In this document: positions 155 to 46,769 of the stretch, one piece after another | How positions within the stretch are numbered: the first letter of the stretch is position 1 | Layout: each line of letters opens with the position of its first letter | Assembly (NCBI GenBank): GCA_026075535.2 | Contig: AP026550.1 | Location: 8,122,001 to 8,186,000, forward strand | DNA from: Tricholoma matsutake | Taxonomy: Eukaryota > Basidiomycota > Agaricomycetes > Agaricales > Tricholomataceae | Direction of reading: 5' to 3' | Length of the DNA: 64,000 nucleotides | Translations under genes and position numbers: made by a program | Notes under the pieces: model-generated | Seen by the model: the letters and a program-made list of their open reading frames with translations, nothing else | What the model was told of the DNA's origin: nothing | The model's database searches: none

Positions 155-474
155 GAGGTCTTTACACTCCCCCCCATATTCCTATAGGAATCCAATGATT
201 CTGATGATTCCAATTGGACTCCAATTGGAATCCAACCATATTCCGATGTCATTTTCACCAGCCAAATTGACATGAAATGGCACATTTAGTCCTAGTCCAG
301 TCTGATGTAGTCTGAGCAGATTCCGATCAGACTATCAGAATTTCCTAGGAATTTCCGATCATAGAGATCACATAGGACTAGTCTGAAGTTATGCTAAGAC
401 ATCAGACAACATAAGATTCTGATAGGAATGAAAGCAGCCTTGCTTAGCAAATATAGTATGAAAAATTAAACACA

Positions 475-557
475 CACACGAGAATTGAACACTTGACATT
501 ACAGAAGATTATGTAAGCCTAAACTGACAATAATACCATTAGGCTAAGCAGTCAGTA
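475..557 (-). ncRNA. tRNA-like unit of E1, left end, pointing outward
   Basis: On the minus strand an A-box-like TAGCCTAATGG (plus 536-546) is followed 44 bases on by a B-box-like GTGTTCAATTC (plus 482-492), and then by a T-run (TTTTT, plus about 463-467) that could end Pol III transcription. A D-arm-like fold is possible. A folded functional tRNA with a convincing acceptor stem is not seen, so this is called tRNA-like and not a tRNA gene. Confidence 0.45.
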
Positions 558-837
558 CAGGTAAGTGATCATACTACACTACATACCATTCTCGCAGGTG
601 TGATGACAAAGCACATAGCCGCATCATCACACCTGCCAGCTCATCACTCCCACCACCACCAACGATGACAAGCATGCCACTTCCATCCCCCCCACCTCAA
701 CCACCTCAACCCAGCAACTCCCACCACTCCCACTCCACCCCCATCTCTAGATGAGCCCCCAAGACTGGAAACAACCAGTTTCAACGTCATGCAGCCCAAA
801 TGACACCCAAATGATGCAATCATTGTTTGGGCCCATA

Positions 838-903
838 GTAAGTTTTTTTTTTCATTCATTTCTTACTTTTGTAAACTAACTAATTCATTTGTTTTGTTTC
901 TAG
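838..903 (+). other. Intron-like cassette of E1 with upstream palindrome
   Basis: The cassette has donor GTAAGT, a long T-rich tract, a branch-like ACTAACT and an acceptor TAG, 66 nt in all. It lies directly after a palindrome of the type CCCAAACGATG/CATCGTTTGGG (here 806-834). The same palindrome-plus-intron unit occurs at 3841, 12137, 12509, 23366 and, on the minus strand, 46250. Conservation of both splice signals in diverged copies argues against chance. Confidence 0.6.
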
Positions 904-1793
904 ATTCTAATCTACATGGGTAACAACAGACCAATGCAAGCCAACCCACACCCAACGACGCCACTGGCAACCCCCCTCCTCCTCATCAAAACGGGATGTG
1001 AGGGTATTGATTGTGGTCAGGAGTGCGGGGAGCAACACCAGGAGACCCCAGAAGGGGAATACCTGCCCGGTAAGCACCACACAACCCCTCCCCTCGTGCC
1101 ACATCACTGATGAACTGACAATGCACCCACCCCATGCCTACAAGCTGCTGCTCGTAGGGTGGATCATGAGTGTATGGACCCCCCACAACACTGATGACCT
1201 CCAGCACTCCCCATCACCGCCATGAGCGACTGCTCACAGGGTGTATATGGGGTGCGAGAGCACAGGAATGGCATGGAGGGATGACAATGGCACCAAATGA
1301 TGCACCTACAAGCAGCTGCCCATAGGGTGGTTTGTGGGTGCAGACAATGAGGGGGATGAACTACAAGGGTGACGAGGGGGGGGGACAAAACAACAAGGGG
1401 AAAGGGAGATGATGACCAGAAGAGGAGGGAGGGGAAGGAAGCCATGGGGGAGGCAAGGTGAGAGAGGCGAGACATGATGGAGACAAGAGGGAGGGGAAAT
1501 GATGGGACAGGGCTGATGAGACAGCTGACATGATGCACCACCACCCCCTCCCCCCCATTTTGTGGGGGGGTGGGTTTTTTTTGTAGAATTTGAAATAGTA
1601 TAATTAAATAGTATAATTAATTCTCCCCCCATGTTTGCGTGGGGGTTTTTTTTTAAATCTATATTAGTTATGTACTCCCTCGCGAAGACGTGAGGGCTCA
1701 ACAATTTTTTTTCAAGCTCTTTTGAGAGAGGTTAAAAATAAGTGAACTAATCCTAAGTGCTTTAAATGGACTTTATATTACATATTTATTAAT

Positions 1794-1888
1794 GCTCCTG
1801 TGGCTCAACTGGTTGAGCACTTGTTTGGTAGTCATGTCACTTATATACCAAGGTCTGGGGTTCAATTCCTGCTCTGCCCATTTATTTT
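1794..1888 (+). ncRNA. tRNA-like unit of E1, right end, pointing outward
   Basis: A box TGGCTCAACTGG starts at 1801 inside a D-stem GCTC/GAGC. B box GGTTCAATTCC lies at 1859-1869 and a TTTT terminator follows at about 1884-1887. The spacing between the boxes is about 58 bases, long for a standard tRNA but possible with an intron or long variable arm. A near-identical arrangement closes E4 (24055-24149). Confidence 0.5.
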
Positions 1889-2136
1889 GTAAGCACTTTC
1901 ACCATGTCAAGTCTTCCAAAATGGTGTGGTATTCCGACTACTACCTGTTGGAATTGCATAGGACTTTACTCAGAATTTACTAGGAATTTCTTGGAAATAA
2001 AAGTACATGGTCATCAAGATACATTCCGATTGGACTCCTAGGACTAGTAGGACTCCTATCAGACTCCTATCAGAAAACTTGGACTCCTAGGACTCCGATA
2101 GGAATACAGGGGGGAGTGCAAAGTTTACCCATTCTG

Positions 2137-2364
2137 CATGGTATTGGTCTTTTTCATGTCAGTGGCCATGTCTGGGAATGTTTCTCATGCTTTTCACTGA
2201 GTTTCATTCCCGGTGCTGGACAAGTGGATGGAGAAATCCTTGAATCATTGTGGTGAGTGTTGAATGAAATCTCACCTAGTACCCAAAATGCTACCATTTC
2301 TGGATGGATTGAAACCTTGGATGATCATATGGGGGATTCCAACTTCAAAAAAATGCAGGACAAC
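2137..2364 (+). pseudogene. KDZ-family transposase, middle fragment (piece 2)
   Basis: This continues piece 1 in frame after E1. It contains the KDZ block IGLFHVSGHVWECF, then SFIPGAGQVDGEILES and LNEISPSTQNA, ending near HMGDSNFKKMQDN. The Glu of DGEILE and the histidines match the family's conserved C-terminal catalytic part. The frame is cut at 2365 by the DDE element, and the KDZ gene resumes near 8920. Confidence 0.85.
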
Positions 2365-2668
2365 AGGTAGGTCTCATTCAGAACCAGCTTGATCACATGC
2401 ATCAGGAAAACCACTTTTTGACACAAGCTTTCCCAGGGTTAAAGGCTATTTCCCAGGACCCATCAAGTGCCCTGGAGTACCCTATGATGCCCTGTGATGT
2501 CCTGTGCCATATGATATTATACTGTAATTGCACCTCTGAGCATTTCAACAATGTCAACATAATTTTTAAATCAATTTTATAACAATCTAAAAGTAGATTA
2601 TATGACATTACATGATACACTAATGATACACTACTGTATTCTACTCTACCACTATGCAATGTCTAACC

Positions 2669-3245
2669 TATGCTGGCCTCTTGTCTAATTGGGACCTTCA
2701 AACGACACCTGAATAGAGTCAGAATAAGCCTAAGATCAGATCAAACAGATGAGAACTTACTAAGATCTCAAGTACCTCATATCAAGCCCCTACTAACAAA
2801 GATGTGGTTGTTGCAAAAGAATGAGTAAGCGCTGGCCTCTCATCTAAGCGGGACTTTCAAATGACACCTAAACAGAGTCAGAATAAGCCCAAGATCAAAT
2901 CAAACAGATGAGAACTTACTAAGATCTCAAGTACTCATATCAAGCCCCTACTGACAAAGATGTAGTTGTTGCGAAAGAATGAGTAAGCGCTGGCCTCTCG
3001 TCTAAGTGGGACCTTCAAACGACACCTAAACAGAGTCAGAATAAGCCTAAGATCATATCAAACAGATGAGAACTTACTAAGATCTCAAGTACTCATATCA
3101 AGTCCCTACTGACAAAGATGTGGTTGTTGCAAAAGAACAAGTAGGTGCTGGCCTCTTGTCTAATCAGGACCTTCAAACAACATCTAAATAGAGTCAGAAT
3201 AAGCCTAATATCATATAAAACAGACCAGGACTCACTTAAGATCTA
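2669..3245. repeat. Tandem array, unit about 158 bp, 3.6 copies
   Basis: The word GCTGGCCTCT recurs near 2670, 2832, 2990 and 3147. Whole units can be aligned between these points with few changes, mostly transitions. No coding frame runs through the array. Confidence 0.85.
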
Positions 3246-3264
3246 GAGCAACCAAAAACATACT

Positions 3265-4080
3265 CATACAGAAGGCAGGTTAAGTGTGGGTCACGGGTGA
3301 CAAAAGTGTGACCCATACCTGTACCCGGAGATACCCATAGCTATGACCCGCATGGGTTACCCCAGGCTCAAATTCAAGTTGGAAAGATAAGTCAATGTGC
3401 CCCATGGGGCGCAGCATTCCCACAGGTTGTTCACGTGACCACTGTGGTCAACAGTTGTCAATGCGAGATTATGCGTGATGTGGGGCTCTTGCAGCCCCAT
3501 GCAGCAGTCACTCGAGGGGATGGGTGCAGGTGGTGTGTCGGCTATAGTCATTGTTGTCAGGGATGATGTTTAAGTGAATTAAAATACCATGAGTAGAGCA
3601 CCCCATGGGGCACTCATGTGACTTATTCTATACAAGTGAATCAACTTAGAATAATAACCACCTTCAACAATGCTGCCATCCACCCTTTCACCTCACTAGT
3701 ACCACCTTTCCACTCCATCAACATCCACCACTGTGACTCCCATGCACATTCCCATGCCAGCAAGAACCACTAATGACCACCAACAAACCCTCTTGGGTGC
3801 AATGCAGGCCCAAACGATGATGGCATCATTTGGGCCCTAGGTAAGTTCTTTTCTCTGTTCCTTGTTCTTTTCAACTAAATAATGTATTTTGTTCATTTTT
3901 AGGAAGTATACTACTGACAGAGACATGTGCTGACATGATACACTCACAACTGAGACAATGGGGATGACGGGATGACAGGGATGAGATGACATGGATGATG
4001 AGGAGGCCCCAGGGACTTTCTGTACATATTAGTTTTTCTTTTGTAGTTATTTTGTACATACAAAAGAACATATAAACCCT
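3265..4080 (+). repeat. E2: relative of the E elements inside element L (modules without clear ends)
   Basis: A GGGTCACGGGTGAC-rich start is followed by a CA-rich stretch, the palindrome at 3812-3838 and an intron-like cassette at 3841-3902 (GTAAGT, CAACTAAAT, TTTTTAG). The sequence after the acceptor, TATACTACTG, matches those behind the cassettes of E3 and E4. Terminal repeats like those of E1 are not seen, so this is a degraded or chimeric relative. Confidence 0.5.
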
Positions 4081-4086
4081 AATAAC

Positions 4087-4795
4087 TCAAACTCAGTAGA
4101 TAAGTTGTAAAGACCCAAAAACCTAGTATGCCAACAATAGTAATGAAGTAAGTAAATGATTGTAATGAAGTAAACAATTTGTAATGAGGTTAGTAACCGG
4201 TCAATAACAGTTTGTAATGAAGTAAGTAAATAATTGTAATGAGGTTGGTAACAAGTCAATAACAGTTTGTAATGAAGGAAGTAAATAATTGTAATGAGGT
4301 TAGTAACAAGTCAATTACAGTTTGTAATGAAGTAAGTAAACAATTGGTAATGAGGTTAGTAACAGGTCAATTACTATTTGCAATGAATTCAGTAATACTT
4401 TTGTAATGAAGTCAGTAATGAAGTAAGTAAGCAATTGTAATGAGGTGAGTAACAAGTCAATGACAGTTTGTAATGACATAAGTAAATAATTGTAATGAGG
4501 TTAGTAACAAGTCAATAACAGTTTGTAATGAAGTAAGTAAATAATTGTAATGAGGTTAGTAACAAGTCAAATACAGTTTGTAATGAATTAAGTAAATAAT
4601 TGTAATGAGGTTAGTAACAAGTCAATAACAGTTTGTAATGACACAAGTAAATAATTGTAATGAGGTTAGTAACAAGTCAATTACAGTTTGTACTGAAGTA
4701 AGTAAAAAATTTGTAATGAGGTTAGTAACAGGTCAATTACCATTTGCAATGAATTCAGTAACACTTTTGTAATGAAGTCAGTAACAATCTTTGTA
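4087..4795. repeat. AT-rich minisatellite, unit about 58 bp, roughly 12 copies
   Basis: The words GTAATGAGGTTAGTAAC and GTAATGAAGTAAGTAAA alternate with a period near 58 bp through the interval. Units have no unique spacers, so this is a satellite and not a CRISPR array. Related single units recur up to 5540. Confidence 0.85.
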
Positions 4796-4799
4796 GTTG

Positions 4800-5530
4800 T
4801 AGGGACTTTGTGCATGAAAAAAGCCTGACGCAATATAGTGGACACCTAGTTTCATGCCTCGCGGTTTCTGGCCACAACACAACCAAACAAAACCCCTTGC
4901 CTTCTACAAGAGAAGAAATGACTTCCTCTTTACTACTTGTTATTTTGTAAGTCTTTTGTTAGTTAATGTGTTGACAGTGGGTAACAAATGTCATATTTAC
5001 AGGCTAATGGTATCAACAAGCTTCAACTACTGCATTATAAACTTGTTTACTGACTTCAATACAAATAATTACTCACTGCCTCAATACAAACCAAACTATT
5101 ATAAACAGTTTATACTGACTTCAATGCAAACTATTACAAGCAATTACCAACTTCAATAGGAACTATTATGAACAGGTCAGTTACAAACTTGTTCAATACA
5201 AACTATTACTCATGGACCCCCTCTATGCTATACTTATAGTCTAATATAATAATATTAGTAGCTGCATCAACAAGATGCTACTGCACTACACTAACTTTGT
5301 AAGTCCTTTGTTAGTCAATGCATTTACAGTTTCAATTAATGTTATATTTGCAGCCTAATTCTGTCTGTGTATTAACAAGCTATTACTACTTACACTCATG
5401 GATTTTTTCAAGTCCTGTAGTGACTGACCAAGAACTCATCAAGTTCATAAGTAGTAATGGTTTGTATTGAAGTTAGTAACATATTTGTAACAACTATAAT
5501 GAAGTTGGTAAAGAAATTTGTAATGATGTT
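4800..5530. other. No gene seen: degenerate relatives of the minisatellite
   Basis: This AT-rich tail of element L has two similar segments (about 4930-5040 and 5280-5400), each with a GTAAGT..TTTGTTAGT..ACAG layout and followed by CAAGCT. They resemble duplicated intron-like pieces. Frames are short and unsupported. Confidence 0.4.
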
Positions 5531-5804
5531 AGTGACATCTTTAGGGCAGGCCTTTGCTCAAGTGTCAGAGGCTATCCAGGAAGCATATGAATCATACATT
5601 CCTGAGGTGCCCTGGAGCACTTTGGACCAAAATTCACTACCCTGAAGACTGGCAAATAATGGCACTTTACCTACAGAGTGCCCAGGGTAGACAATTGCCT
5701 TGGATGCCCTGGCATGTCCCAAGGCATCCTAGGGTAACCCAGGACACCCTGGGGACAAAAGCAACTTTCCTGATGTGGTTGTGACCACATTATTAGGATA
5801 TAAA

Positions 5805-6813
5805 TCAAATTCTTTGTTTCTGGTCAAATTGGGTCAGAATGTCAGCAGGAATTGTCTGGTGCCCTCGAAATTTCTTTGCAGCTCAGGCAGCGTTCCATTC
5901 AAACCCATCTGATATGCATTCATGAATCAGAGTGATCGTGTCACAAACCTGGAAAGCAACAACTGTTGTCAAGTTAGGCATCTGATGACTCAGAAATAGA
6001 CATTGCAAATTACTCACCATCGCATGGATATCAAGGGAACTTCATCCAGTGCTTGAAGAACATTCTGCTCTAGGTCATCCTCCTTAGATGATGGGGGAAA
6101 TATTCGGTATTGTCTTTTTGCGTGTCCCCAGCATTGTTTGATGAAATTTAATTCACAGTGGAATTTTGGAAGAAACAAAATCTGAAATCCTTGTGCTTTG
6201 CATCAGCCTCAAGGATTGAATCAACATTCTTGAAATCTGGCTCGTTATAAAGCATCCTGTGGCAGCAATATGTTGTCGATCCTTCAAGGCAGTCAGTGAA
6301 TTTTTTACTGCATTGTGCCTTCATATTCTTGATGCCCTGATAACCTCGCTCTTCCAGGATTTGTACCATCCCTTTGAATTGTCCTGCATGCTTGTGCCCC
6401 TCAGGGTAATAGAACTGTTGTTCTGTTCCATCCTTGAATTTTCTGTTAGCCATTGGAATTTTCCGCTTCAAGATCTTTCCATCTGGTCCATAGATTGCTT
6501 TTCCTGTGTCATCTGTTGCATTAACTTCAACACAGAAATTTGCTGATGCCCCTTTTGTCATCTTTGAGGCTGATAGTTATCCTCCAGCCCATTTAAGCTG
6601 TGTCATGGCATTGTCAAAGATCAGAATGTGCCTCTCATGGGGATAATGCTTCTTTAAGATCTCCAATGCATGCGCAGCCTGTGTGCAGATATTTTCATTG
6701 TCAAAGTATCCATCGCAACCTTTCCCAGCTCTGAAAATGACACGAGCACTTTCTTTCCCATCTGGTGACCACAACCAACCATAATCTGCTGAGACGAAGT
6801 CAGCAATCATAAG
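5805..6813 (-). pseudogene. DDE-superfamily transposase, C-terminal part
   Basis: This is the catalytic half of a fungal DDE transposase. In reading order it has SADYGWLWSPDG, then the second catalytic Asp in LIFDNAMTQ, a Cys-rich stretch with FTDCLEGSTTYCCHRML, and the segment LNFIKQCWGHAK, followed across a short intron by RGHQTIPADIL near the end. In this family the third acidic residue is the Glu of LNFIE; here it is Lys, a G-to-A change that should abolish catalysis. A TGA also replaces a Trp codon near the C-terminus. The upstream half lies at 7529-8531, split off by the Gypsy LTR. Confidence 0.75.
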
Positions 6814-6818
6814 GGAAT

Positions 6819-7523: not shown

Positions 7524-7528
7524 GGAAT

Positions 7529-11476: not shown

Positions 11477-11877
11477 TGTCACAATCTGTTCCTCGCCTGA
11501 TCGGAACCCACAATTATCCAACCCTTTTCTGCCAACATTCTTCAAACTCATTCCACTTTGTTCCCGGCCACCTTGCACTGCCCACACTGCTGTGCACCAG
11601 GCCACCTTGTACAGCACCCATGGGAGGTCTTTACACTCCCCCCCCCCAATCTGAGCGGAGTCTGCTTGGACACTCGGACTGTCCAAGGACTTTACTCAGA
11701 CTTTGCTCAGACTTTGCTCAGACTTCTTTGGCTGAAAGTCCTGCTAAACTAAATGTACAGTCTGAGCTGAGTCCTTGGACTGTCCAAGTGTCCAAGTGGA
11801 GTCTGAGTGGACCAGCACTCATACAGTCCTACGACAGTCCAAGTTGCTTATATAATTGACTGAAAAATCAGTGGCTA

Positions 11878-11952
11878 CTGCAGGGATTGAACCCTCATAG
11901 TCACATGATAAAGTATATTTAAGGCAGCGATATAACCGTTAGACTAAAGCAT
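11878..11952 (-). ncRNA. tRNA-like unit of E3, left end, pointing outward
   Basis: On the minus strand TAGTCTAACGG (plus 11936-11946) is a good A box and GGTTCAATCCC (plus about 11882-11893) a near-perfect B box, with a TTTTT run just beyond (plus about 11864). The A-to-B spacing of about 43 bases fits a tRNA. It is the most tRNA-like of the set. Acceptor-stem pairing was not established. Confidence 0.55.
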
Positions 11953-12136
11953 CATTACAGGTAAGTAGTTATATCTCTCTATGTACTGCCCCAGCTGTGA
12001 TGACAAATCAACACAGCTGCATCATCAACAACACTGGCACATCACCTTCAATGGCACTGCCTCCTCCTTACCTCCTACCCCAATAATCAACAACGGGAAT
12101 GAGCCCAACCAATGGCATTGTCATTTGGGCTCACTT

Positions 12137-12564
12137 GTAAGTGTTTTTTTACATGATTTTTGTTGTTTTGTTTAACTAACTGAATGTTCCTTAATCATAG
12201 GTTTAATCTATGTTATAATGATGTTGCAGCCTCAAAACCATGACAATGGCTGACACAGCCACCACTATAGGATCCAGAACCACCATCACAAGCAACTGCT
12301 TGTGGGGTGGGAATGGGTACAACTGCAAAATGGCAGGACAACAGCGATGCCAACTTGGCCAAACAGAATGACAATGCAATGAGGTGACTGGAGACAACGG
12401 GGACTGGGAGATGGAATGACGAGGGGACAAGCAGGAAACAATGAAAGGAAGGCAAAGCAAATGAAGAAAAGGCCCAAGAGATGTTGTTTGATGTCTCTTG
12501 GGCTGTTGGTAAGTTTTTTTTTCTTTTCTCATTTCATTTTTTGATGCTAACTAGCTTTTTATAG
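12137..12564 (+). other. Two palindrome-plus-intron cassettes of E3
   Basis: The first cassette runs 12137-12200 (GTAAGT..AACTAACTGAATG..TCATAG), after a GCCCAACCAATG/CATTGTCATTTGGGC palindrome. The second runs 12509-12564 (GTAAGT..TGCTAACTAGC..TATAG), after CCCAAGAGATG/TGTCTCTTGGG. The second acceptor is followed by ACTACTACTGGCGATGATG, matching the sequence behind the E4 cassette. If transcribed, the transcript could be spliced twice. Confidence 0.55.
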
Positions 12565-13047
12565 GTACAAACTACTACTGGCGATGATGACGATGACGAC
12601 GATGACACCACCACCACTGCTGTGAGCCCCTGCTCGCAGGGTGGAAGGTAAGGGGGAAGAGATGAGGGGAAGGGAGATGAGAGGGAAGGGAGACAACGAC
12701 AAGAGTGGGGACACCCACAATGACACCTGCCCCATGCCTACAAGCATCTGCTCATGGGGTGGTTCAGGGGGGAGAAGAATGGGGACAGGAGAGTGAGATG
12801 GCCAGGGGACAACCCGGGGAGAGATGAACACCGCCACGAGCAACTGCTCATGGTGGGTGTTTTTAATTTATTTTTATAATTGATAGTTACAGCCCCCTCC
12901 CCTCGACCTTGCAAGGGGAGGGCTTAGTATTATACATATTAATTACCCCTCGCACAGATGCAAGGGGGTGAATTTATTAATCTATTTATGATATTAAAAA
13001 AATTAGATTTCAGTAATAAATAGATATAATGTATGTCATTTTGAATG

Positions 13048-13144
13048 ACTACTTGGCTTAAGTGGTAGAGTGTGCATGTTTCATTGTCATGTTGCTAGTC
13101 CAGAAGGCTGTTGGTTCAATTCCTGCTGTGCACACATTATTTTG
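13048..13144 (+). ncRNA. tRNA-like unit of E3, right end, pointing outward
   Basis: A-box-like TGGCTTAAGTGG lies at 13054-13065 and B box GGTTCAATTCC at 13113-13123. A TTTT terminator follows within 20 bases (about 13141). It shares the internal word TGTCATGT with the right-end units of E1 and E4, which suggests one common ancestor. Confidence 0.5.
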
Positions 13145-13927
13145 TGAGACTTATAAGACTTTCTCTAAGACTGGAACTCGGACTTTACTTGGACAGTACT
13201 TTAAAGGTGTAAATAAATGCACAATTGATGTTGTCTGAGCAAAGTCCGAGTGCAGTCTGAGTGCAGTCTGTGGACTTTACTCGGACAGTCTGAGTGTCCG
13301 AGTGTGTCCGAGCGGAGTCCACTCGGACTCGGGGGGGGAGTGTAAAGTACTGACCCAAGGCTGCCATCTCTTTTGCAAATTCGACTATGGATTCCTGTGT
13401 GGTTCCCACTAGGTCATTTATCTATGCAGTCGAGACACTGCCGCAGCTCCCACTTCTGTTCTGCTTTTATTCCTGACTTTAGTATTTAAGCTTAGTTAGT
13501 TTCGTCTTGTATTCCTCAGCTCATATAGCAACATAGACTTGACTTAACCTGCCAATTCAAATCTTGTTCCACTCCTACCTCTGCCTCTAAGAGTCTGAAC
13601 TCCTTTGACTCAAACCTCTAGTTCTCCCTGTGAAGTTCTGGTCTCATATGAGCTCAACCTAAGTCCCTCCATACTCCTACCTGCACTTCCCCACTTCTAC
13701 CTCCAAACCTTTGTCTTGGAATTAGGACACCAGACGAGGTGAAGGGCGCAGCTTCTTACAAGCTGAAGCCAAGTCCTTTCCATTTCCCCTCTGCAATATC
13801 TGCTACGACCCAACAAACTTCCACTATCACAACCTGCCAGGTCTGACCAGATTCTGATGTGCCCCTTTGGATCAGTTTTTAACAGTATATACAAACTCAC
13901 ACTTCACTCCTCTCACCACACTCCTTC

Positions 13928-22095: not shown

Positions 22096-22999
22096 CAGGT
22101 AGAGAGGGAGTGGCCATCATGATTGCCATGGGGGCATGGATGAATGGGTTCTCTTTTGTGACATCACTGTCCTCCATTTCAAGGTGGTGAGGTGGCACCA
22201 GCTGTGGCAACACCTTTTGGCATTTTGACTGAGGTGGAGCCAGTTGTTCTATGACCCTCTTTTCCTTGCCCTTGCCCTTGGCCTTGCTCTGGCCTCTTGC
22301 AGCCGCTTCTGCTTGGTTGGTCTGAGCTTCTGACATTGTAGTTTGCATGGTGGTGGGAATGGGTGTGGAAACTGCAATGGGTGGTGTAGCCGTGGTGGGA
22401 GATCGGAGTGTAATGTGCATGGCCAGGAGTGCTGCTTGGTGCAATGATGGGTGAAGTTGGACAAAAATATGTGCTATGGTCAATGGATTCCCAAGGTGCT
22501 GGGCCAGACTTATTCCACTCATGAAGGACTTTGAACACGTGTTTGAGGAATGGCGTCATCGGTGCTTCCTTAGCCAACACCTTTTTCCTATAATCCAACT
22601 TCAAAGCCTTCTGAGAAAGATTCATAGGACATAAGAAAAATCATGCACCAGCTTTCCCAACATGGATTTCTCATCCACGGTTGTCCGACTACCATCCAAA
22701 AATGTATTGAGGGCATGCTCCATGGATTCGATGTACTGAGAAGACAGAGTACTTTACACTCCCCCACCTATTCCAGTTGGATTCTGGTTTGTCCAGCCAG
22801 AATTTCTGGAATTTCTGGAATCCAGTGGAATTTTTTTTGTATGTAGTTTTCCCTATGCAGCACAATTCCAGTTGGACTAAGGATCCAATTTACACCTGGA
22901 ATCCCCGGAATCTGACTGGACTCATCACAACTGGACTAACTGGAATGCATGGACTAACCTAACCAGACTCATGTGCTTTCCCAAATAAAAGTTTCACAT

Positions 23000-23080
23000 C
23001 CAGTAAGAATTGAACACTCGACCTTGGGTCTACACAGGTTTATACACTGAACAACATGCTTAACCACTGATCTACCAAGT
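23000..23080 (-). ncRNA. tRNA-like unit of E4, left end, pointing outward
   Basis: On the minus strand TAGATCAGTGG (plus 23064-23074) continues as GTTAAGC, an A-box and D-loop-like text. GTGTTCAATTC (plus 23007-23017) is a B-box variant and TTTT follows (plus about 22988). The E1 left unit has the identical B box. Confidence 0.5.
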
Positions 23081-23365
23081 CTTTACTCCTACCTACATTC
23101 AATACCATTATTACCCTTTTACCCTTTTAAGGGTGTAGTAATGCATACGCATAGCCACATGCATTGCATGACACATGACATGTGACTGCCAGCTCACAAC
23201 CACCACCATCATCAATGCTGCCTCCTCCTCTCCACTCTATCACCACCACTGTGCCCACCCACCACCAGCACTCCCATGCCCACTCTCACCATCACCACCA
23301 CCCTCAAACAAGCTGACTGGACGGAACATGGGCCCAAACGATGGCAACTGTCGTTTGGGCCATGG

Positions 23366-23427
23366 ATAAGTTTTTCTTTTTTTTCTTTGTTTTATCAATC
23401 AACTAATTGTATTTTATTGCTTTTTAG
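23366..23427 (+). other. Intron-like cassette of E4 with upstream palindrome
   Basis: The donor reads ATAAGT where the other copies have GTAAGT, a single G-to-A change that should block normal splicing. Branch-like CAACTAAT and acceptor TTTTTAG are kept. The palindrome CCCAAACGATG/TCGTTTGGG immediately upstream is the best-preserved example. Confidence 0.55.
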
Positions 23428-23625
23428 GTTATATACTACTGGGGATGACCTGCCACAACGAAAAATGTGCAACCCATGCCCATGCCCACCCAATCCCCTC
23501 CTCCCCATTCAAATGGGATGTGAGGCTGTTGACATGGGCTAGGAGGGTGCAGAGGGATGCCAGGAGACCCCAGAAGGGGGGGGTACCTTCCTAGTAAGCA
23601 CCCACCAACCTCTGTACTGGCACCC

Positions 23626-23740
23626 CATCACACTGACACACCAACCCCCATCACACTGACACACCAACCCCCATCACACTGACACACCAACCCCCATCAC
23701 ACTGACACACCAACCCCCATCACACTGACACACCAACCCC
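23626..23740. repeat. Microsatellite, 23-bp unit, 5 copies
   Basis: The unit CATCACACTGACACACCAAC plus a C-run repeats five times almost without change and ends in a C/A homopolymer pair. It lies inside E4. Confidence 0.9.
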
Positions 23741-24053
23741 CCACCCCCCCAAAAAAAAAAAAAACAGAAATCCAAACCAGGGACAACAGTGATGAACAAC
23801 GACAAGCTACCCACCCCCAGCCTCACAAGCAACTGCTCATGGGGTGGTTTTTATATATATAAATAAAACTCCCTCTTGCATCTTGTGAGAGAGAGTTTAT
23901 GTGTGTAATTACATCCCCACATCCCTCAAGTTCAATGCGAGGGATGTGGTTGAATCAAAAAATTTGATCTTAATTATCTGACTTCAAAAAAATGTACAGT
24001 CACAAGTTTGAGTGTCATAAATAAACCTTGTATTACTAACTCATAATTCTCCT

Positions 24054-24150
24054 GTGGCTCAATTGGTTGAGCACAGTAGTTTGGTTTGTCATGTGATCAT
24101 TTCACTGCAAGGTCTTGAGTTCAATCCTTACTCTGTACAAAGTTATTTTG
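24054..24150 (+). ncRNA. tRNA-like unit of E4, right end, pointing outward
   Basis: A box TGGCTCAATTGG begins at 24055 within a GCTC/GAGC D-stem. B-box-like GAGTTCAATCC lies at 24117-24127 and a TTTT terminator at 24146. It is closely related to the unit at 1794-1888. Confidence 0.5.
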
Positions 24151-24388
24151 TAGGCACTTCAAGAACTTAGGCTTGAAATGTGACTCTCTCGATTATGGTA
24201 TACTATAATAAGTTGAGCATCTGGAATAACTAGAGTGCTGGAATCTGATTGGAATAACTGGAATCCAACTGGAATTTCTGGAGTCCATGGAGTCCGACCA
24301 GAATAGGTGGGGCAGTGTAAATTACAGAGAAGACATGGTAAAACCATTTGTACTTAGGGTGGATGCAGTTGATAGTGTCAATAACCCA

Positions 24389-32972: not shown

Positions 32973-33031
32973 CTTCGAATAATTTTATATGTCTACCATA
33001 CATTGAATGACAGTTGAGATCACTACTATTG

Positions 33032-35320: not shown

Positions 35321-35324
35321 GAAG

Positions 35325-40246: not shown

Positions 40247-40846
40247 TGGTCGCATCTCATCTGGAGAAAAATGCCATCCGCATCAATAGCGTGCTTAACG
40301 GGTTATAATTTGGATCATCCATTCCGATCGGAATTTTTAACCGGGACGGAGCATTTGAAACGTTTTGGGCCTTCGCTTAGGGATAGTATATACGTCCTCA
40401 GGAACAGGTATGCTACGGCTATCTCCACTTTCGCTCGCTGTGAAAACTGTCCATGTACACTCCTGGTAATGCACTCGCTAGTGGGCTGTCTCTTTAGCTT
40501 CTTTCCCCAACAAAATCGATGCGCAAACTTGGAGTTGCATCTGGATGACATCGATGGTGAATCGGTGATTAGATCAGAGATCTCCCGGTTTTCCGATCTC
40601 TCCATACACTGGCATAACATGTTCGTTACACATGGAAGCATCACCGAAGCACGAAACGAGTGTATCTCCGCTGTCGTTAACGGACAGCTTGTCCTGAGGC
40701 AGGCCCGTCTTCGAGTTGATGCAGCTAGTTTGGACTCTGGAGCGTCGTTGGTTGGACTTGTTGAATTGTGGGCCCAGGGCAAGCAGTTGCTGATTGACCG
40801 GTCCTCGTCCTCTGAGCGTTCGACCTTTGTGATGATACCAACTTGA
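40175..40846 (+). CDS. Hypothetical protein (223-codon open frame)
   Basis: This is the longest open frame of the island's right half without an intron. The predicted product has no recognised domain. Its second half (LELHLDDIDGESVIRSEISRF..VLRQARLRVDAASLDSG) is protein-like, while its first 40 residues come from the local duplication, so the true start may be later. A 155-codon frame lies on the opposite strand of the same stretch; the plus frame is preferred on length only. Confidence 0.3.
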   Translation: MCVGFYPMTSDNRLSRLQNAQRCVWSHLIWRKMPSASIACLTGYNLDHPFRSEFLTGTEHLKRFGPSLRDSIYVLRNRYATAISTFARCENCPCTLLVMHSLVGCLFSFFPQQNRCANLELHLDDIDGESVIRSEISRFSDLSIHWHNMFVTHGSITEARNECISAVVNGQLVLRQARLRVDAASLDSGASLVGLVELWAQGKQLLIDRSSSSERSTFVMIPT

Positions 40847-41584
40847 GTTCAAGGCGGCCCTCTAGACATAACAAGCAAAAACATCCAGCAAGAGCCGGGA
40901 AAAAAGAAGAAACCCGAAAGTAACTTGGAAAGTAATTATGTTTTACTACGTGAAAAAAAATATCACAAAGGGAAGCGATACAACAGAAATCAGAACATAG
41001 AACACAGCTACAGAGCAGTGATGATTCACGAAGAGAAGTCTTGCCAGTGATCAATCATATTGGCTGTAAATATCTCTGAACACTACATATCATTTTCCAT
41101 CCATTTTAGGGATGGGTACAACAATTGAAAAACTCGTGCCAGATCATTCGGGCCAAAACTTTCTAATTCTGTTACACTGACTTCGTGGCAATCTATGCTT
41201 CTAGACTAGGTCTCCTTGATGCTGTGGCTCCATCTCTTTCGTTTGCCCAAGTCGAGAACAAAGCCTATAATTCCAAGGGACTGACGAACATGTTGAAGGT
41301 GATTGGAGATAACGCAACGTAACATTCGAGAAACTCCTTTTCATCATCTCACTTTGTCCATACAGATCGAAGCACTGCAAGCAGCGCCTAGGTAGCTGAC
41401 ATAGATACTTTTGCTGTGGTCCTCACAAATGAAGGTGGAGATTAGTACGCTGCTTATACATTATTTTTAACTCTATGGAATTCATGATAGTATCGCGTTA
41501 TGCTCAATTCATATCCCACTCCTCGTATAGTAACTATAACCCAGACTGTGAAAGATACCCGTACATGTAGAGGCGAGTACGTGG
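40847..41584. other. No gene seen; contains one copy of a dispersed direct repeat
   Basis: The part at about 41137-41240 (CATTC/GGGCCAAAACTTTCTAA, TGTTACACTGACTTC, CTTGATGCTGTGGCTC) is repeated at about 43228-43345. The 3' end of the HECT remnant may extend into the right part. Confidence 0.4.
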
Positions 41585-42186
41585 TCACCTAGCGATATGC
41601 AGGGCTTGATATTGCTGTATATAGTCCCTCCATAGAAGTTTAGCGAGGAAGAATCCAGCAAAGCGACGTCGACGAGGAAACGCCTTGCCAAGTATCCTAT
41701 AAATTGATACCAATTCGAGCTGTGCCTTGTGTGAACCGCAATGATCAACCGGCCAACCCTCACGAACAACAAAAGAGAAAAAATTACCCTCGGTAGTGTA
41801 CGCATGCGGGGTCGGATACAACTCATTCTTCATATTCGCTAACGAAAGCCCACGATCGGTATCAAAAACTTTTTTACACAACGAAGCGCAAAACCACTCA
41901 CTCCTCCCCAAACTGATCAATAAACGTAATCTCAACCGGAGCCTTCAAATCCGCCTCTAAGTTTATCAAACCCATCCTGCGCCACACTCCCCCTACACAC
42001 CTGGACCCTCGTCTTCTCGAGCCGGTTCTCATCTACATCTGCATGGGGTTAAGAGAGAAATGAGATTGAGAACGGGATTGAGAGTGTTGCCGTCGTTGAA
42101 TACAAAGCTGCGGAATATGGAGACCCGGACGTCGAAGGGAATGGAGAAGGGGATGTTGTTGAGGACGAGGTAGGCTAGTTGGCGTT
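41585..42186 (-). pseudogene. HECT-type ubiquitin ligase fragment (HUL5/UBE3C-like), degenerate
   Basis: Reading on the minus strand, the pieces match the N-lobe of a HECT domain in order: LNNIPFSIPFDVRVSIFRSFV, ENRLEKTRVQVCRGSVAQDGF, LKAPVEITFIDQFGEE, VFDTDRGLSLANMKNELYP with HAYTTE, WYQFIG, and FAGFFLAKLL. They lie in different frames with stops and at least three shifts. The C-lobe with the catalytic Cys is absent. HECT ligases of this type extend ubiquitin chains at the proteasome. This copy cannot work. Confidence 0.75.
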
Positions 42187-43093
42187 TGGTGTGTGTGTGG
42201 GTACGTGTGGCGGGCGTCGTTGGTTGTGAAAAGTTATTGTTCTTCGAAGCTGGGGGATAATTTAGTTTTTGGCTGGAGGGAGAAAGGATGGATTGGATGG
42301 CTGCTTCTACGAGCAACTGTACGTCGATTTGAGATGTGCGTTTGGTGTGTGTGTGGGTACGTGGGGCGGACGTCGTTGGTTGCGAAGAGTTGTTTTTCTT
42401 CGAAGGTAGGGGAGGCGAGGTCGGTTTGGGCTGGGCAGGGGAAAGGATGTTTACTCTCACGTAAAGATATACACAACGGCTCCGTCCTTCCTGCTCTCAT
42501 CGAATGTCTATTTGCGCCAAGCACCCTGTGGCCCACAGTGCTCGGACGCGGTCCTCGCAGCAGGTGCGGGCTTGATTGGAGAATTCGAGAAGTCTATCGA
42601 GGGTACATAAGAGGTAGGGTAGCTTGGTAACGACGCGAGCGGGTCTACGACGTTGTGGTATCATGGGAATAGCGTTCTTGATACGGGCAGGCATTGAAGA
42701 CTGTGGGGATGACGAGCTTCTTGGAGCTTCGGATTCGGGTTCGGGGATGGAAATGGGGACGCAATGAGCAAGTGCTGGGTTCGTCCTCATCTTCGTTGTC
42801 CGTACGAGATAGGACCGACCCAGACGCAGAAGAATCCGTTAACCTTGGATGAACTGAGATCGTTCAGTCGGCAGTTGTTGAGGAGAATGCAAGGAGAAAG
42901 AGGGCGATGCGAATGGGGGATGGGCATCATGGCTAGGCTTGTTGGGGGGCGGGTGCCGATGGTGGAGGGTAGTACAGCTATGCGTGGGTGTACAGGAAAA
43001 GGTGACGAGGTATCGCGTCTGAGGAGCAACCGCAGCTTGAAGCTTGAAAGCTTGAGCCGTCACCTCTACTGTACGACGCGGCGAGAAGGTCAC
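42187..43093 (-). pseudogene. Probable upstream remnant of the HECT gene with an internal duplication
   Basis: A direct duplication of about 110-130 bp (about 42181-42300 and 42333-42450) repeats HTHTKR-coding text and GCGTTTGGTGTGTGTGTGG. Frames further up (VVTKLPYLLCTLDRLLEFSNQA, about 42590-42640) are protein-like but not recognised. Assignment to the HECT gene is by position only. Confidence 0.35.
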
Positions 43094-43450
43094 CGCGATG
43101 AAGGAGATGCACGTGCTGTTTTATATCATTCCCACGATCCAAATAAGGACCAAGCTCGAGGTCCCATTAGCAACGATTGTCTTCCTTTGATTTGGTCTGC
43201 CTACGGGAGACTACATCTCGTGTAATCTGATCATTCTGGCCAAAATTTGCTAATCATGTTACACTGATTTCATGGCAATCCATGCTTCTAGATACACTGG
43301 TTCTGTGGTGATCAATGCTTCCTCCTTGATGCTGTGGCTCATCTGTTTCATAGATGGTCTTGATCGAACACCCACAAATAACTTATAAGTGTCCGTAGTA
43401 TGCTCAATGCTCATGAAATTCAACATTGCCCTCCACCTTCAAGTATTAGT

Positions 43451-44939
43451 ATGACCATCACTCCTGATGATAGTGCACGCCTTCAGCATGTGGGTATTAT
43501 ATTTCTCACAAACCTTGCAACTCTCATAACAATAACCTTGCTACAAGGTAATGCTGTTACATTTTACCCTGTTGATGTTCTAATCCAACTCTAACCTTTC
43601 TATATCAGGCATATTCATAATGGTCTTCTCTATTGCAGTACACACCACCTTGTTTGTCCAAGCCTACACTGCTTATTTTAGAGGTCTAACTTCTGTTTAC
43701 AGGTGCCAGGGACTCAAATCTCACCCAACATGGGCAATCTTTATTCTAATCATCCTCAGCTTCACTGTAACCACCATAAACTGGGCTGCATGTATGGCAG
43801 CTGTTACAATTCAGATCCGCTCAGTGCTTGTGAGGAATGTTGGTATGGAGTTGTCTGAGAAGATGGCTCTATCGAATACAGCAATAACTAAGCTGTACTT
43901 TATCAACTTGGAATTGCCATCTTTTATGGTGTTGTAAACTCAATTTTCCATCTTACATCCTTCTGAAATGTATCCTCCTGCCATTTCTAGTGGTTCATTA
44001 ATGATATTGTGGTTATATGGCGAGCTTGGGTCCTCTTTCCACAGCACCAATGGGTCATGATTGGCCCTCTTTTCTTTTTGTTGCTGACATTTGGTGAGAT
44101 TTGAAGTTTCACAGTTATCCAACTCAGATTGCTGACTCATATGATGGTGTCTGCATCAGTGACAATGCTCATTGCCATTGCCATGGCAGTAAAATCACAG
44201 AATATGTCGGACATTATGTCCACCTGCAACTTTGCTGCCTCTATCGTAACTAACCTTCTTGCTACCTTGCTGATTGCCTACAAGCTATGGTTGGTCAATA
44301 TTTCCTCTGATGTCAGTAATTATTTGCTCATTCCTGATAGGGACTACCAAAAAGCCACCAAGAATCTTGGTCTGAAGAAACAACAATCTCCTGTGCAAAA
44401 AGTGCTGTTTCTTCTTGTAGAGTCAGGAGTTATCTTCCTCATATTACAAGTGAGTTTTGATTCTGCTTTCATGTACATGTCAGCTAGCTACTGATCAAAT
44501 GACTCATCATGTCTTAGTTGGCAAACTTGTTGCTCACCATTTTAACAAATACCCTAGGTACAGCTGCTTACTATGCACAAGCTGTTTTTAATTCCATTTA
44601 TAATGAGTTGGTGGCAAGTCTTCCATCAGCCCATGATCTGTGTTGGCATTTCACTGACCTGACAAATTCTGCCAGGCAATGTATCCAGCACTCATACTTA
44701 TCATTGTCAACAAAAAGCACTCAATCATAGACACAGTTGGTTTCAACACAGTACTTGGGAGCAATTTGAATGGTGAAGGCCATGCAACCAGTGCTGAACA
44801 TCGACCAGCAACTATTGGTCATCTTGTCTTTGCCAACCCACCCACCAATAACAGTGTAGATAATGGACAGTTACCTTCAACCAGACATTCCAATGTCCCT
44901 GATGGTCTTGAAAAAAGCAGTGATTCATCCAAGGTCTAG
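43451..44939 (+). CDS. Multi-pass membrane protein of agaric type, several introns
   Basis: The start MTITPDDSARLQHVG (43451) precedes the first helix. The first intron is at 43547-43609. Helices follow in pieces: IFIMVFSIAVHTTLF, WAIFILIILSFTVTTINWAACM, IRSVLVRNVGMELSEKMALSN, LGIAIFYGVVNSIF, NDIVVIWRAWVLFPQHQWVMIGPLFFLLLTF, SIVTNLLATLLIAYKLW, VLFLLVESGVIFLIL, YPALILIIVNKKHSIIDT, then a hydrophilic tail to 44939. The layout (about seven helices, NDIVVIWRAW, cytosolic tail) fits a large, unnamed agaric membrane-protein family. Function unknown. The exon joins near 43900-44000 are uncertain. Confidence 0.6.
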
Positions 44940-45193
44940 TGTTAGAAAACAATTATATAATAAAATTTTTCTTTTATTTTTTTATATCAGAATACTGTAA
45001 GAGTGCCCTCTTACAACAGCATCCATTATCACATGTTATCCTGATAGCATATAGTCTATACCTCGAGTCTTGTACTGTAGCTTAGTTTCCTCCCCCAAAA
45101 TATACTAAGTTCATAATATGTCTCATTCTCCTTGAGTGTTGGAAGCTCCAGCTTCCTTCCACTTTTTTTCTGTTATGAACTTACTATTACACT
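44940..45193. terminator. 3' flank of the membrane-protein gene
   Basis: An AT-rich stretch with AATAAAATTTT at about 44958 is a likely polyadenylation region. It ends at the target duplication of E5 (45194-45201). Confidence 0.35.
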
Positions 45194-45639
45194 CTCTACA
45201 CTAGTGTTTGAAAGTCTGGTCCAGTCCAGTTTTTTGCCCACCTCAGGGGGCAACCGTGGACCAGACTGGTCCATATATTTCAAATATTACATGCAACTGT
45301 AGACTGGACCAGTATAAACCAGTCCATCATGGTTCCCTGATGGTTGCTGGACTGGTCACAACCAGTCCAGTACTAAACTGGTCAGGACCACGTAAGTAAT
45401 ACAAGTTGTACACTAAGTTAAACACTAAATAGAAATTCTAAAACTAATATTCACACCCTGAGAGCAGAAGCTCACAGCAGTGGAGGGTGCTACAAATAAT
45501 AAATGAAAGAAAAACAGATAATTCCCCCACAGGATGTGTGGGGGTCCACATTAGCATATGAAAAAAAAGAAGAAAAAACCAAAAGAAAAAGAAAAGAAAT
45601 AGCCCCACCATCTCATGTTTGTAACAAGGGTGGGGTCCT

Positions 45640-45985
45640 GCTGCCATTCGTTTGTCGTTCCCTGTCATTTGTCATTTCCTGCCGTTTGTCATTCCCCGCT
45701 GTTGGTCGTTCCCTGTTGCTGGTTGTTCCCTGCCATTGGTTGTTTCCCATTGTTGGTTGTTCCCCATCATTCGCCATTCCCATTGTTTGTTGTTGGTCGT
45801 TCCCTGTTGCTGGTCGTTCCCTGTTGCTGGTTGTTCCCTGCCGTTGGTCATTCCCCATTGTTTGTTGTTCCCATTGTTCGCCGTTCCCGTTGTTCATTGT
45901 TCCCCATTGTTTGCCATTCCCATTGCTTGTCGTTGGTTGTTTCCTGTTGCTGGTTGTTCCCTGCCGTTGGTTGTTCCCCATCATT
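45640..45985. repeat. Minisatellite of E5, unit about 15 bp
   Basis: Words such as GTTGGTCGTTCCCTG and GTTGGTTGTTCCC repeat through 345 bp. On the minus strand this gives an open frame rich in Asn, Gln, Gly and Thr (45613-45984). The frame is a by-product of the repeat unit length and is not called as a gene. Confidence 0.85.
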
Positions 45986-46196
45986 CATTATCCCTCCTGG
46001 TCAGCACCTCCATACCTCCCTACGAGCAGTGGCTCACAGGCAGGGTGGTGGTGCTGTGTGATGTGGCATTGGCAGTGGTCATCACTGGACAGAAAAGGGC
46101 CCGTTGCCACCCTGCGAGCAGAGGCTCGCAGCAGTGGCACAGGGTTTCTGTGTGTCATTCAGTGGGTGGGCGATGTCGTAGTCAAGATGCAAGAAC

Positions 46197-46250
46197 CTAA
46201 AAGAAAAACATTTAGTTAGTAAAAGAAACAACTCAACAAATAATACTTAC
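46197..46250 (-). other. Intron-like cassette of E5
   Basis: On the minus strand: donor GTAAGT, a perfect branch site TACTAAC, acceptor TTTTAG, 54 nt in all, directly after the GGCCTGAACGATG/CGTTGTTTGGGCC palindrome. This is the cassette with the best splice signals. Confidence 0.6.
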
Positions 46251-46769
46251 ACTGGGGCCCAAACAACGACTAGCATCGTTCAGGCCTCCTGCCTTGTGTT
46301 TGTTTGTTTGGGTCATGGTGTGCATGTTGTTGGTGGTGGGTGCGGATGGAGGCTAGAGTAGGGTGGGAAACAAGTGTGTCAACTTTGTGTGATACAAGCA
46401 AATGCATCAACACGTGATGCAACAACACATATTACGTGTTCATTTACTGTGAACAAATATGTACAACTACAGTAACATATATAAGCCCCACCAATTCATG
46501 TGGCATCCCCCCTCATAGTTAGTTTATTATATACAATATGTACATTAGTTTATTGTTTTATAGGGTATGTAATCTAAGTGTAAGAAGACTGGTTGTAACT
46601 GGTTTTATAATGGTTTTCAAATGTTTTCAAAACAAGTGAACTGGCAACCAAACCATGGTTTCGGTTGCTCACTTTTTCAGACAAATGGATGAAACCACAG
46701 CATGGACCACGGTTCAGTCCAGTTCGGTCTTCGGTCCTATGGACTGAACCTTCAAACACTACTCTACAC

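What the first reader, a model, noticed from the sequence alone, without database searches (positions are those of the whole stretch)
155..46761. A family of transposase-less hAT-like elements with a shared, structured non-coding interior
E1 (155-2128), E3 (11624-13352), E4 (22747-24327) and E5 (45202-46761) are 1.6-2.0 kb, have 8-bp target duplications (one with a mismatch) and no transposase. All share, in the same order, a palindrome, an adjacent intron-like cassette, GAGC/GCTC hairpins and G/C-rich hairpins near one end. Flanking sequence diverges much more than these modules. Seen: modules and duplications. Inferred: the interior is kept because its RNA does something, for the element or the host. 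I do not know a described family of this kind.
Basis: partly seen in the sequence, partly recalled or inferred. Interest (0 to 1): 0.88.

Follow-up and report, generated by a model that had tools for sequence, protein, structure and literature searches.

The report
Matsutake transposons carrying hairpin RNA modules
The matsutake mushroom genome holds thousands of copies of gene-less jumping elements that share a non-coding interior of small hairpins and introns, and the way the hairpins have changed over time suggests that they matter as RNA; no one has yet shown that the RNA is made.

Summary
Confirmed: E1, E3, E4 and E5 are 1.56-1.97 kb elements with 8-bp target duplications (E3 with one mismatch) and no Pfam domain in the frames scanned. 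The genome is the 13-chromosome Tricholoma matsutake assembly. All share, in order: a hairpin directly before an intron-like sequence, GAGC palindromes, and G/C hairpins often followed by T runs. Genome counts: 4,050 exact cassette hairpins and 10,774 GAGC motifs, controls 0 and 1. On the first 3 Mb of chromosome 1, 44 of 92 GAGC hits have a cassette upstream, 1 downstream. Both stem types covary beyond shuffles, partly through G-U intermediates. The interior occurs behind different terminal repeats, while E6, with E5-type ends, lacks it. Against a required function: E4-type copies have lost the splice donor, excess conservation is uneven, the G-U strand bias rests on few events, whole-interior folding shows no strand preference, and nothing here shows transcription. 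Best reading: a non-coding transcription unit carried by several non-autonomous hAT-like families, its hairpins kept at RNA level in the lineages that amplified.

The parts
155..2128 (+). E1, whole element (TIR GAGGTCTTTACACTCCCCCC), inserted in a KDZ-type transposase gene
   Evidence: TSD CCATTCTG both sides; the two flanks match PF18758 at profile positions 114-137 and 150-179, both below the curated cut-off; frame open across the empty site
806..831 (+). E1 cassette hairpin
838..903 (+). E1 intron-like sequence (GTAAGT ... CTAAC ... TAG)
   Evidence: sequence
1141..1236 (+). E1 GAGC hairpins, cores at 1141-1154 and 1223-1236
1546..1700 (+). E1 G/C hairpins; the first two are followed by T runs
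   Evidence: hairpin at 1546; the others read from the sequence
478..565 (-). E1 left A/B-box-like (tRNA-promoter-like) stretch, pointing outward
   Evidence: nhmmer profile built with this stretch among its seeds; no tRNA by ARAGORN or Rfam
1787..1886 (+). E1 right A/B-box-like stretch, pointing outward
   Evidence: seed of the profile; A box 24 of 25 identical between E4-group and E1-group majorities
3807..3902 (+). E2: further cassette (hairpin 3807-3836, intron-like 3841-3902) in a truncated repeat
11624..13352 (+). E3, whole element
   Evidence: TSD ACCCATGG/ACCCAAGG
12100..12200 (+). E3 first cassette: hairpin 12100-12133, intron-like 12137-12200
12471..12564 (+). E3 second cassette (GAGATG stem type): hairpin 12471-12503, intron-like 12509-12564
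   Evidence: relatives
12289..12850 (+). E3 GAGC hairpins, cores starting at 12289, 12623, 12741 and 12837 (one before and three after the second cassette)
12895..12968 (+). E3 G/C hairpins
   Evidence: 12895; second read from the sequence
22747..24327 (+). E4, whole element
   Evidence: TSD AGAAGACA twice; a 23-mer of its left end occurs 242 times in the genome, control 0
23331..23427 (+). E4 cassette: hairpin 23331-23361, intron-like 23366-23427 with ATAAGT in place of a GT donor
23826..23839 (+). E4 GAGC hairpin core
23869..23947 (+). E4 G/C hairpins (23869-23895, 23919-23947)
   Evidence: sequence, coordinates
45202..46761 (-). E5, whole element (TIR TAGTGTTTGAA); the interior reads on the minus strand
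   Evidence: TSD CTCTACAC twice
46197..46289 (-). E5 cassette: hairpin 46254-46289, intron-like 46197-46250
46023..46128 (-). E5 GAGC hairpins (46115-46128, 46023-46036); a third at 45462-45473 lies beyond the G/C hairpins
45518..45638 (-). E5 G/C hairpins (45602-45638, 45518-45546)
   Evidence: sequence, coordinates
59348..60185 (.). E6: 838-bp element with E5-type ends but no cassette or GAGC hairpin (natural control)
   Evidence: TSD CATGGAAA twice, 0 cassettes, 0 GAGC

Best explanation
These are non-autonomous, hAT-like DNA transposons of Tricholoma matsutake that carry a shared non-coding transcription unit. Its strand-specific anatomy is: one or more 'hairpin + intron' cassettes (the stem ends a few nt before a splice donor), then GAGC hairpins, then G/C hairpins often followed by T runs that look like 3'-end or termination signals. 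SHOWN: the anatomy, its order, its abundance, its presence behind at least two terminal-repeat types, lack of recognised coding content in the frames tested, and compensatory change in two stem types. INFERRED: the unit is or was transcribed on the intron strand in the source copies; the hairpins work in that RNA; the transposase comes in trans from hAT elements; after insertion most copies decay neutrally. Most likely mechanism (inferred): the cassette hairpin holds the splice donor in a defined structure so that the transcript is spliced or retained in a controlled way, and the 3' hairpins end it. The structured RNA favours the element, for instance by stability or by keeping read-through away from the terminal repeats, and the module was passed between terminal-repeat families by recombination or gap repair.
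For: Covariation of the cassette stem in 28 hand-picked diverse rows: 87.3% of cells paired (shuffles 82.0, 0/500), 9 of 15 pairs changed on both sides (1/500), 31 such cells (shuffles 15.8, 0/500), slid structures at most 50.9% paired; arm-swap permutation 365 vs mean 343.2, maximum 362 of 5,000. Positional sample from chromosome 1, inner five pairs: 305 of 380 paired vs 288.6, p=0.0012, 76 unique of 84. GAGC flanks: 46 unique combinations, 156 of 184 paired vs 143.5, maximum 154 of 5,000. Both-side changes: CTG/CAG, CTA/TAG, TCA/TGG with G-U intermediate CTG/TAG; CCAAA/TTTGG, CTGAA/TTTGG (two G-U), CTGAA/TTCAG; GGCCC/GGGCC, GGCCC/GGGTC (G-U), GACCC/GGGTC. G-U versus A-C: 27:4 in the cassette pairs from 7-40 to 19-28 other than the CpG pairs, against 9:9 at the two CpG pairs; GAGC flank pairs 1-3 60:8, against 50:46 at the core CpG pairs. 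Introns: of 40 palindromes from chromosome 1, 26 showed a donor on one side (25 with branch and acceptor too), none had all three signals on the other side. Order 44:1 of 92. 20 of 33 G/C-rich hairpins followed by TTTT, none preceded by AAAA alone.
Against: No transcription evidence. GT donor lost in all 11 E4-type cassettes and in ten of the 40 sampled cassettes by eye, so splicing is not needed for amplification. Excess conservation uneven. Whole-interior folding of 12 chosen elements: the intron strand has the lower mean z-score in only 7 of 12, and the less stable raw energy in 11 with one tie. The G-U excess depends on which pairs are taken: with all 15 cassette pairs it is 39:22, the two stem-end pairs alone giving 2:7 and 1:2; GAGC flank pair 2 is 4:4, and position 9, outside the stem, 10:52. 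In the oriented chromosome-1 sample it is weak (10:5 at pairs 12-13, 16:12 at the CpG pairs). Counts are copies, resting on perhaps half a dozen independent events. One covariation measure, further pair types, was not above shuffles (54/500). Palindromes have mutational routes to repair. No transposase partner found: 3 of 100 listed E4 ends within 8 kb of one of 150 listed hAT domains, 1.4 expected, and the one opened held a complete element that does not include the hAT domain; 0 of 76 typed TIR-B places on chromosome 1.
Confidence: 0.5

Rival explanations
1. DNA-level palindromes: the stems are binding sites for dimeric proteins or sites that form cruciforms, and arm-to-arm matching is kept by quasi-palindrome repair (template switching), not by RNA function. 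Introns and T runs are neighbours without a shared role.
For: The stems are near-perfect and short-looped, good substrates for palindrome correction (recalled knowledge). Whole-interior folding shows no strand preference. Decay at CpG pairs is strand-symmetric, as expected if most copies are never selected. The G-U bias is weak in the chromosome-1 sample.
Against: Template switching makes Watson-Crick pairs, yet several subfamilies hold G-U states and few hold A-C within the stems outside CpG pairs (27:4 and 60:8). The cassette hairpin keeps its orientation and distance to an intron signal in 26 of 40 sampled places, and by eye also in most of the others, where the donor is mutated.
Confidence: 0.22
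2. Passive inheritance: the interior is the untranslated, intron-bearing part of an old autonomous element (or a captured host RNA gene). It looks conserved because the families are related by recent exchange, and covariation dates from when the ancestor was functional.
For: Uneven excess conservation between subfamilies. Donor loss in prolific subfamilies. Strand-symmetric decay in copies. Non-autonomous elements often keep terminal and UTR parts of their parent (recalled).
Against: The stems went on changing in a compensatory way between sister subfamilies (E5 versus E5b; the GGCCC/GGGCC, GGCCC/GGGTC, GACCC/GGGTC series). Elements with E5-type ends exist both with and without the interior, so it is a separable module. 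Of 30 hAT-domain neighbourhoods compared with the elements, 6 showed similarity; only L029 was read in full, and there the hAT fragment appears by eye to be a nested insertion; the other 5 were not resolved.
Confidence: 0.22
3. Protein-coding remnant: the modules are decayed exons of a hAT transposase or another protein, and the palindromes are incidental.
For: Introns with good consensus normally belong to mRNAs.
Against: No Pfam match at E<=0.1 for 10 long frames of several interiors nor for the E5 antisense ORF at E<=0.01; no relative of the E4 sense-strand frame at E<=0.001; tandem units of about 150 bp with a hairpin in each.
Confidence: 0.04

Closest known systems
Non-autonomous hAT elements (hAT superfamily; fungal hAT families in PMC12730594, passages seen)
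   Same: 8-bp target duplications, short terminal inverted repeats, subterminal repeats, no own transposase
   Different: The interior is not a shortened transposase gene but an ordered set of covarying hairpins and introns, shared between families with different ends
Zisupton/KDZ transposons (Zisupton 8-bp, Kyakuja 7-bp duplications, PMC12730594 passages)
   Same: An 8-bp duplication is also compatible with Zisupton; E1 sits inside a KDZ-type gene
   Different: The ends were not compared with Zisupton ends, and no search for KDZ genes inside these elements other than the Pfam scans was made
MITEs
   Same: Very many non-coding copies with terminal inverted repeats
   Different: Larger (1.37-2.16 kb, one of 2.69 kb, for cassette-bearing elements with a duplication), with orientation-specific introns and hairpins with T runs
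tRNA-derived SINEs / megB1 of Agaricomycetes (megB1 in PMC10627285, passages seen)
   Same: A- and B-box-like motifs near the ends of E1/E3/E4-type elements
   Different: Terminal inverted repeats and 8-bp duplications point to DNA transposition; boxes face outward at both ends; no tRNA fold; the megB1 sequence was not compared
Introner-like elements (recalled)
   Same: Intron-like units present in very many copies
   Different: Here the intron is one module inside a larger transposon, with a hairpin in the upstream exon; a duplication of the intron's own was not tested for

Membership tests
hAT superfamily (non-autonomous member) | 8-bp target site duplication | tested here: met
   21 distinct cassette-bearing elements, 17 exact and 4 with one mismatch; the scan listed only elements with such a duplication, so it gives no failure rate
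hAT superfamily (non-autonomous member) | short TIRs of hAT type (TAGNG/CAGNG-like start, recalled consensus) | tested here: inconclusive
   E5/E6 start TAGTG; E1/E3/E4 ends start GAG, CAG, CTG or GTA followed by a TTTACAC/TTTGCAC core
hAT superfamily (non-autonomous member) | an autonomous relative with the same ends and a hAT transposase | tested here: inconclusive
   No convincing partner: 100 of 242 E4 ends against 150 listed hAT domains, and 76 typed places of 702 TIR-B ends against the 15 of these on chromosome 1; 449 hAT candidates, 150 scored
MITE | small size (below about 0.8 kb, recalled) | tested here: not met
   1.37-2.16 kb for cassette-bearing elements, and one of 2.69 kb
tRNA-derived SINE | tRNA head detectable as tRNA; no TIRs | tested here: not met
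   no tRNA by ARAGORN or at Rfam gathering score in the window, none at E<=1 in E1 and five loci; TIRs present; four box regions folded without a cloverleaf
Conserved structured RNA | compensatory base changes beyond shuffled and slid controls | tested here: met
   one of five measures not above shuffles
Conserved structured RNA | transcription and splicing of the unit | not testable with these tools
   no RNA data available
Conserved structured RNA | match to a described RNA family | tested here: not met
   none at gathering scores in the window; at E<=1 in E1 and five loci only matches below the families' cut-offs, the strongest (82.6 bits, cut-off 195) outside the element of L070

The most novel reading that the evidence does not exclude
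A transferable RNA cargo: a structured, spliced non-coding RNA gene that several different non-autonomous DNA transposon families have taken up, and that drives their success (over 10,000 hairpin modules in one genome) by acting as RNA for the element. This would be a class of RNA-bearing DNA transposon for which I know no parallel.
Probability: 0.2. Interest if true: 0.87.

Novelty: new variant of a known kind. Interest (0 to 1): 0.62.

Why it matters
Matsutake repeats include 40.9 Mb 'unclassified' (PMC10211490, passages), and these elements may make up part of it. If the interior is kept as RNA, non-autonomous DNA transposons can be selected for an RNA product and not only for their ends. 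That would make directly testable the question of why some non-autonomous families hold on to long interiors. The compensatory series, with symmetric CpG decay inside the same stems, gives a built-in neutral control that other studies could use.

Tried and rejected
Protein-remnant reading: rejected for lack of any Pfam or protein relative in the frames tested. Known RNA families: none. tRNA/SINE reading: box motifs only, no tRNA. Global folding: no strand preference in 12 chosen elements. Carriers outside the genome: the cassette pattern hits 93 stretches of viral contigs, none with the cassette profile, the GTAAGT continuation or the GAGC motif, so I take them as chance matches. Autonomous partner: no convincing case; C4:6846631 was opened because a hAT domain lay 4.3 kb away, but the E4-type element there is complete (2,160 bp) and does not include it. 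A leader sequence next to the L069 cassette proved to belong to another abundant repeat, 188 first-look candidates, that also carries an intron but a degenerate hairpin. Literature: a five-term search on hAT MITEs in Basidiomycota returned 0 papers; two broader searches returned 25 papers (12 listed) and 2 papers, none with such a title or abstract start (listings only). In the earlier T. matsutake TE paper (PMC6980582, term search only) hAT, DNA transposon, MITE and SINE do not occur. Papers not held by this library were not searched, so 'not described' is limited to these searches. A search for tRNA-Ile in Tricholoma added nothing.

Rows dropped before counts: overlapping duplicate loci (L001, L039, L056, L062, L063); cassette hits close to a better one, mostly antisense echoes of palindromes; for A1 all but 28 chosen diverse cassettes of 69. 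One search left out cassettes scoring under 40, those under 25; the two CpG pairs and the two stem-end pairs are given apart from the 27:4 count. One search used 40 places of the 84 distinct places listed: the first in order, without the three in L005, most repeats within arrays and recurring copies. One search compared 76 typed TIR-B places of chromosome 1 (one per close pair) and not the listed places of C2.
Full report
WHERE. The window is G000:C13:8122001-8186000 of a 161,040,721-bp, 13-contig genome. The total and the chromosome lengths seen equal those of the Tricholoma matsutake telomere-to-telomere assembly (PMC10211490, passages read). A gag protein from the window matches 47 proteins, one of them named as T. 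matsutake.

OBSERVATION. E1/E3/E4 share a CTTTACACTCCCCC-like terminal repeat, each with its own subterminal palindromes (read from the sequence). E5 has a different one (TAGTGTTTGAA) and is inverted. Extending the check to the fetched loci listed 23 distinct elements with a duplication (at most 1 mismatch, ends free to shift 2 bp); 21 carry a cassette hit and 2 do not. The two without (window 59348-60185 and L072:1052-1870) have E5-type ends, so the interior is separable from the ends. E1 sits in a KDZ-type transposase gene whose two halves match PF18758 on either side, both below the curated cut-off.

THE MODULES. Module 1 is a stem (typically GGCCCAAACGATG...CATCGTTTGGGCC) followed within about 7 nt by an intron-like sequence: GTAAGT, CTAAC, YAG. 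It can be tandemly repeated: 18 of 19 successive spacings under 400 bp on the first 3 Mb of chromosome 1 lie between 126 and 171 bp. Module 2 is a palindrome around CGAGCAnnTGCTCG with paired flanks (123 copies). Module 3 is a set of G/C-rich hairpins. Of 33 hairpins classed as G/C-rich by a simple rule, 20 are followed by TTTT; 7 of these also have AAAA before them and none has AAAA alone. A few of the 33 are not module 3, such as one in E3's subterminal part.

ABUNDANCE AND ORDER. GGCCCAAA-N8..24-TTTGGGCC occurs at 4,050 places (a palindrome, so counted alike on both strands) and its reversed-pattern control at 0. YRAGCNNNTGCTYRNRGGGTGG occurs 5,371 + 5,403 times, control 0 + 1. On the first 3 Mb of chromosome 1, 44 of 92 plus-strand GAGC hits have an exact cassette hairpin within 1.2 kb upstream and 1 downstream, against 2.5 and 2.4 for random positions; 25 of 50 GAGC clusters have no exact cassette hairpin near. 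Of 40 cassette hairpins from the same region, 26 showed a splice donor on one side, 25 of them with branch and acceptor signals too; none had all three on the other side. Of the other 14, ten have an intron-like sequence whose donor reads ATAAGT (8) or ATATTT (2), three have off-consensus GT donors, and one (L188) is an unrelated GC-rich hairpin (my reading).

RNA OR DNA? In 28 diverse cassettes 87.3% of stem cells pair (shuffled 82.0%), 9 of 15 pairs have changed on both sides, and the covariation score exceeds all 500 shuffles; the number of further pair types does not stand out (54 of 500 shuffles reach it); sliding the partner by 1-3 columns drops pairing to at most 50.9%. Swapping whole arms between sequences never reached the observed value in 5,000 trials. 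Caveats: the rows were picked for diversity and are related. The chromosome-1 sample, not chosen by me but conditioned on perfect outer arms, still shows inner-stem covariation (305 of 380 vs 288.6, p=0.0012). GAGC flanks covary too: CTG/CAG, CTA/TAG and TCA/TGG, with CTG/TAG as a G-U intermediate. Stem series through G-U: CCAAA/TTTGG, CTGAA/TTTGG, CTGAA/TTCAG and GGCCC/GGGCC, GGCCC/GGGTC, GACCC/GGGTC.

STRAND TEST. CpG decay inside the stems is symmetric: G-U 9 to A-C 9 in cassette pairs 15-32 and 16-31, and 27:24 and 23:22 in the GAGC core. The other cassette pairs from 7-40 to 19-28 give 27:4, and GAGC flank pairs 1-3 give 60:8, in favour of G-U on the intron strand. This is what RNA-level selection on that strand predicts. 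The weak side: the two cassette pairs at the ends of the stem go the other way (6-41, 2:7; 20-27, 1:2), so all 15 pairs give 39:22; pairs 18-29 and 19-28, which supply 17 of the 27, may also descend from CpG; the counts are copies over few independent events; GAGC flank pair 2 is 4:4, and position 9, outside the stem, is 10:52; in the oriented chromosome-1 sample the excess is only 10:5 at pairs 12-13 and 16:12 at the CpG pairs.

E5 group (11 copies) versus E5b group (4 copies) majorities: splice sites 29 of 30, GAGC 58 of 67, cassette hairpin 27 of 34, G/C hairpins 28 of 37, ends 436 of 539, spacers 419 of 577, the spacers also with many gaps (Fisher p 0.002 for splice sites, 0.012 for GAGC, 0.43 for the hairpin, 0.001 for the ends; G/C hairpins not tested). 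E4 group (8) versus E1 group (3): A-box-like stretch 24 of 25 (p 0.0001), hairpin 25 of 32 (p 0.04), splice-like 21 of 28 (p 0.12), GAGC 17 of 30 and G/C 31 of 50 (not above spacer, 498 of 837), ends 229 of 407. Repeated GAGC and G/C modules may be misaligned there. So the excess is real for some modules and absent for others.

CODING. No Pfam domain in 10 long frames of several interiors or the E5 antisense ORF, and no protein relative of the E4 sense-strand frame. Most of the longest frames lie in tandem low-complexity repeats. Not every frame was searched.

HOW IT MAY WORK. The parts in reading order - hairpin-guarded donors, introns, hairpins, T-run hairpins - look like a spliced non-coding transcription unit with its own 3'-end signals. 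I infer that source copies make this RNA, and that its hairpins were selected there, while most other copies drift. Splicing itself cannot be essential everywhere, since all 11 E4-type cassettes have lost the GT. The transposase supplier is unknown: proximity tests found no convincing case for 100 E4 ends against 150 hAT domains or 76 TIR-B places on chromosome 1 against the 15 of these there.

VERDICT. The elements are a new variant of non-autonomous hAT-like transposons. The RNA reading is favoured but unproven.

Noticed in passing
window 478-565, 1787-1886, 11875-11965, 13042-13143, 22998-23090, 24041-24148: A/B-box-like (tRNA-promoter-like) stretches near both ends of E1/E3/E4-type elements, both pointing outward; no profile hit fell inside a delimited E5-type element (those in L047 and L049 lie beside it). 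They could act as pol III promoters or TFIIIC-type boundaries. No tRNA fold or Rfam match.
   Followed up: partly
window 23366 and L174, L186, L191, L192, L197, L201, L204, L205: The donor reads ATAAGT instead of GTAAGT in at least two cassette types (GATAAGT and CATAAGT), each in several copies, with branch point and acceptor mostly kept. Why a dead donor amplifies is unexplained.
   Followed up: partly
L168:1501-1756 and L069:651-905: Another abundant repeat (188 first-look candidates) with its own leader sequence carries a similar order: degenerate hairpin, intron, GAGC-like motifs, G/C hairpins with T runs. A possible promoter-bearing relative of the module.
   Followed up: partly
G000:C1, e.g. 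1201093-1201535 and 1379845-1380288: Many E5-type end pairs about 443 bp apart facing each other: a short element family with E5-type ends and too little room for the interior.
   Followed up: no
L029 about 1290-2530: A short hAT-like element with a broken transposase C-terminus, TIR TAAGGCTCCAACCG and duplication AACCAGCC (read by eye), nested in a module-bearing repeat.
   Followed up: partly
window 2672-3244 and 4168-4795: Two tandem arrays (158-bp unit x3.6; 55-bp unit rich in GTAATGAAGTAAGTAA) on either side of the truncated E2.
   Followed up: no
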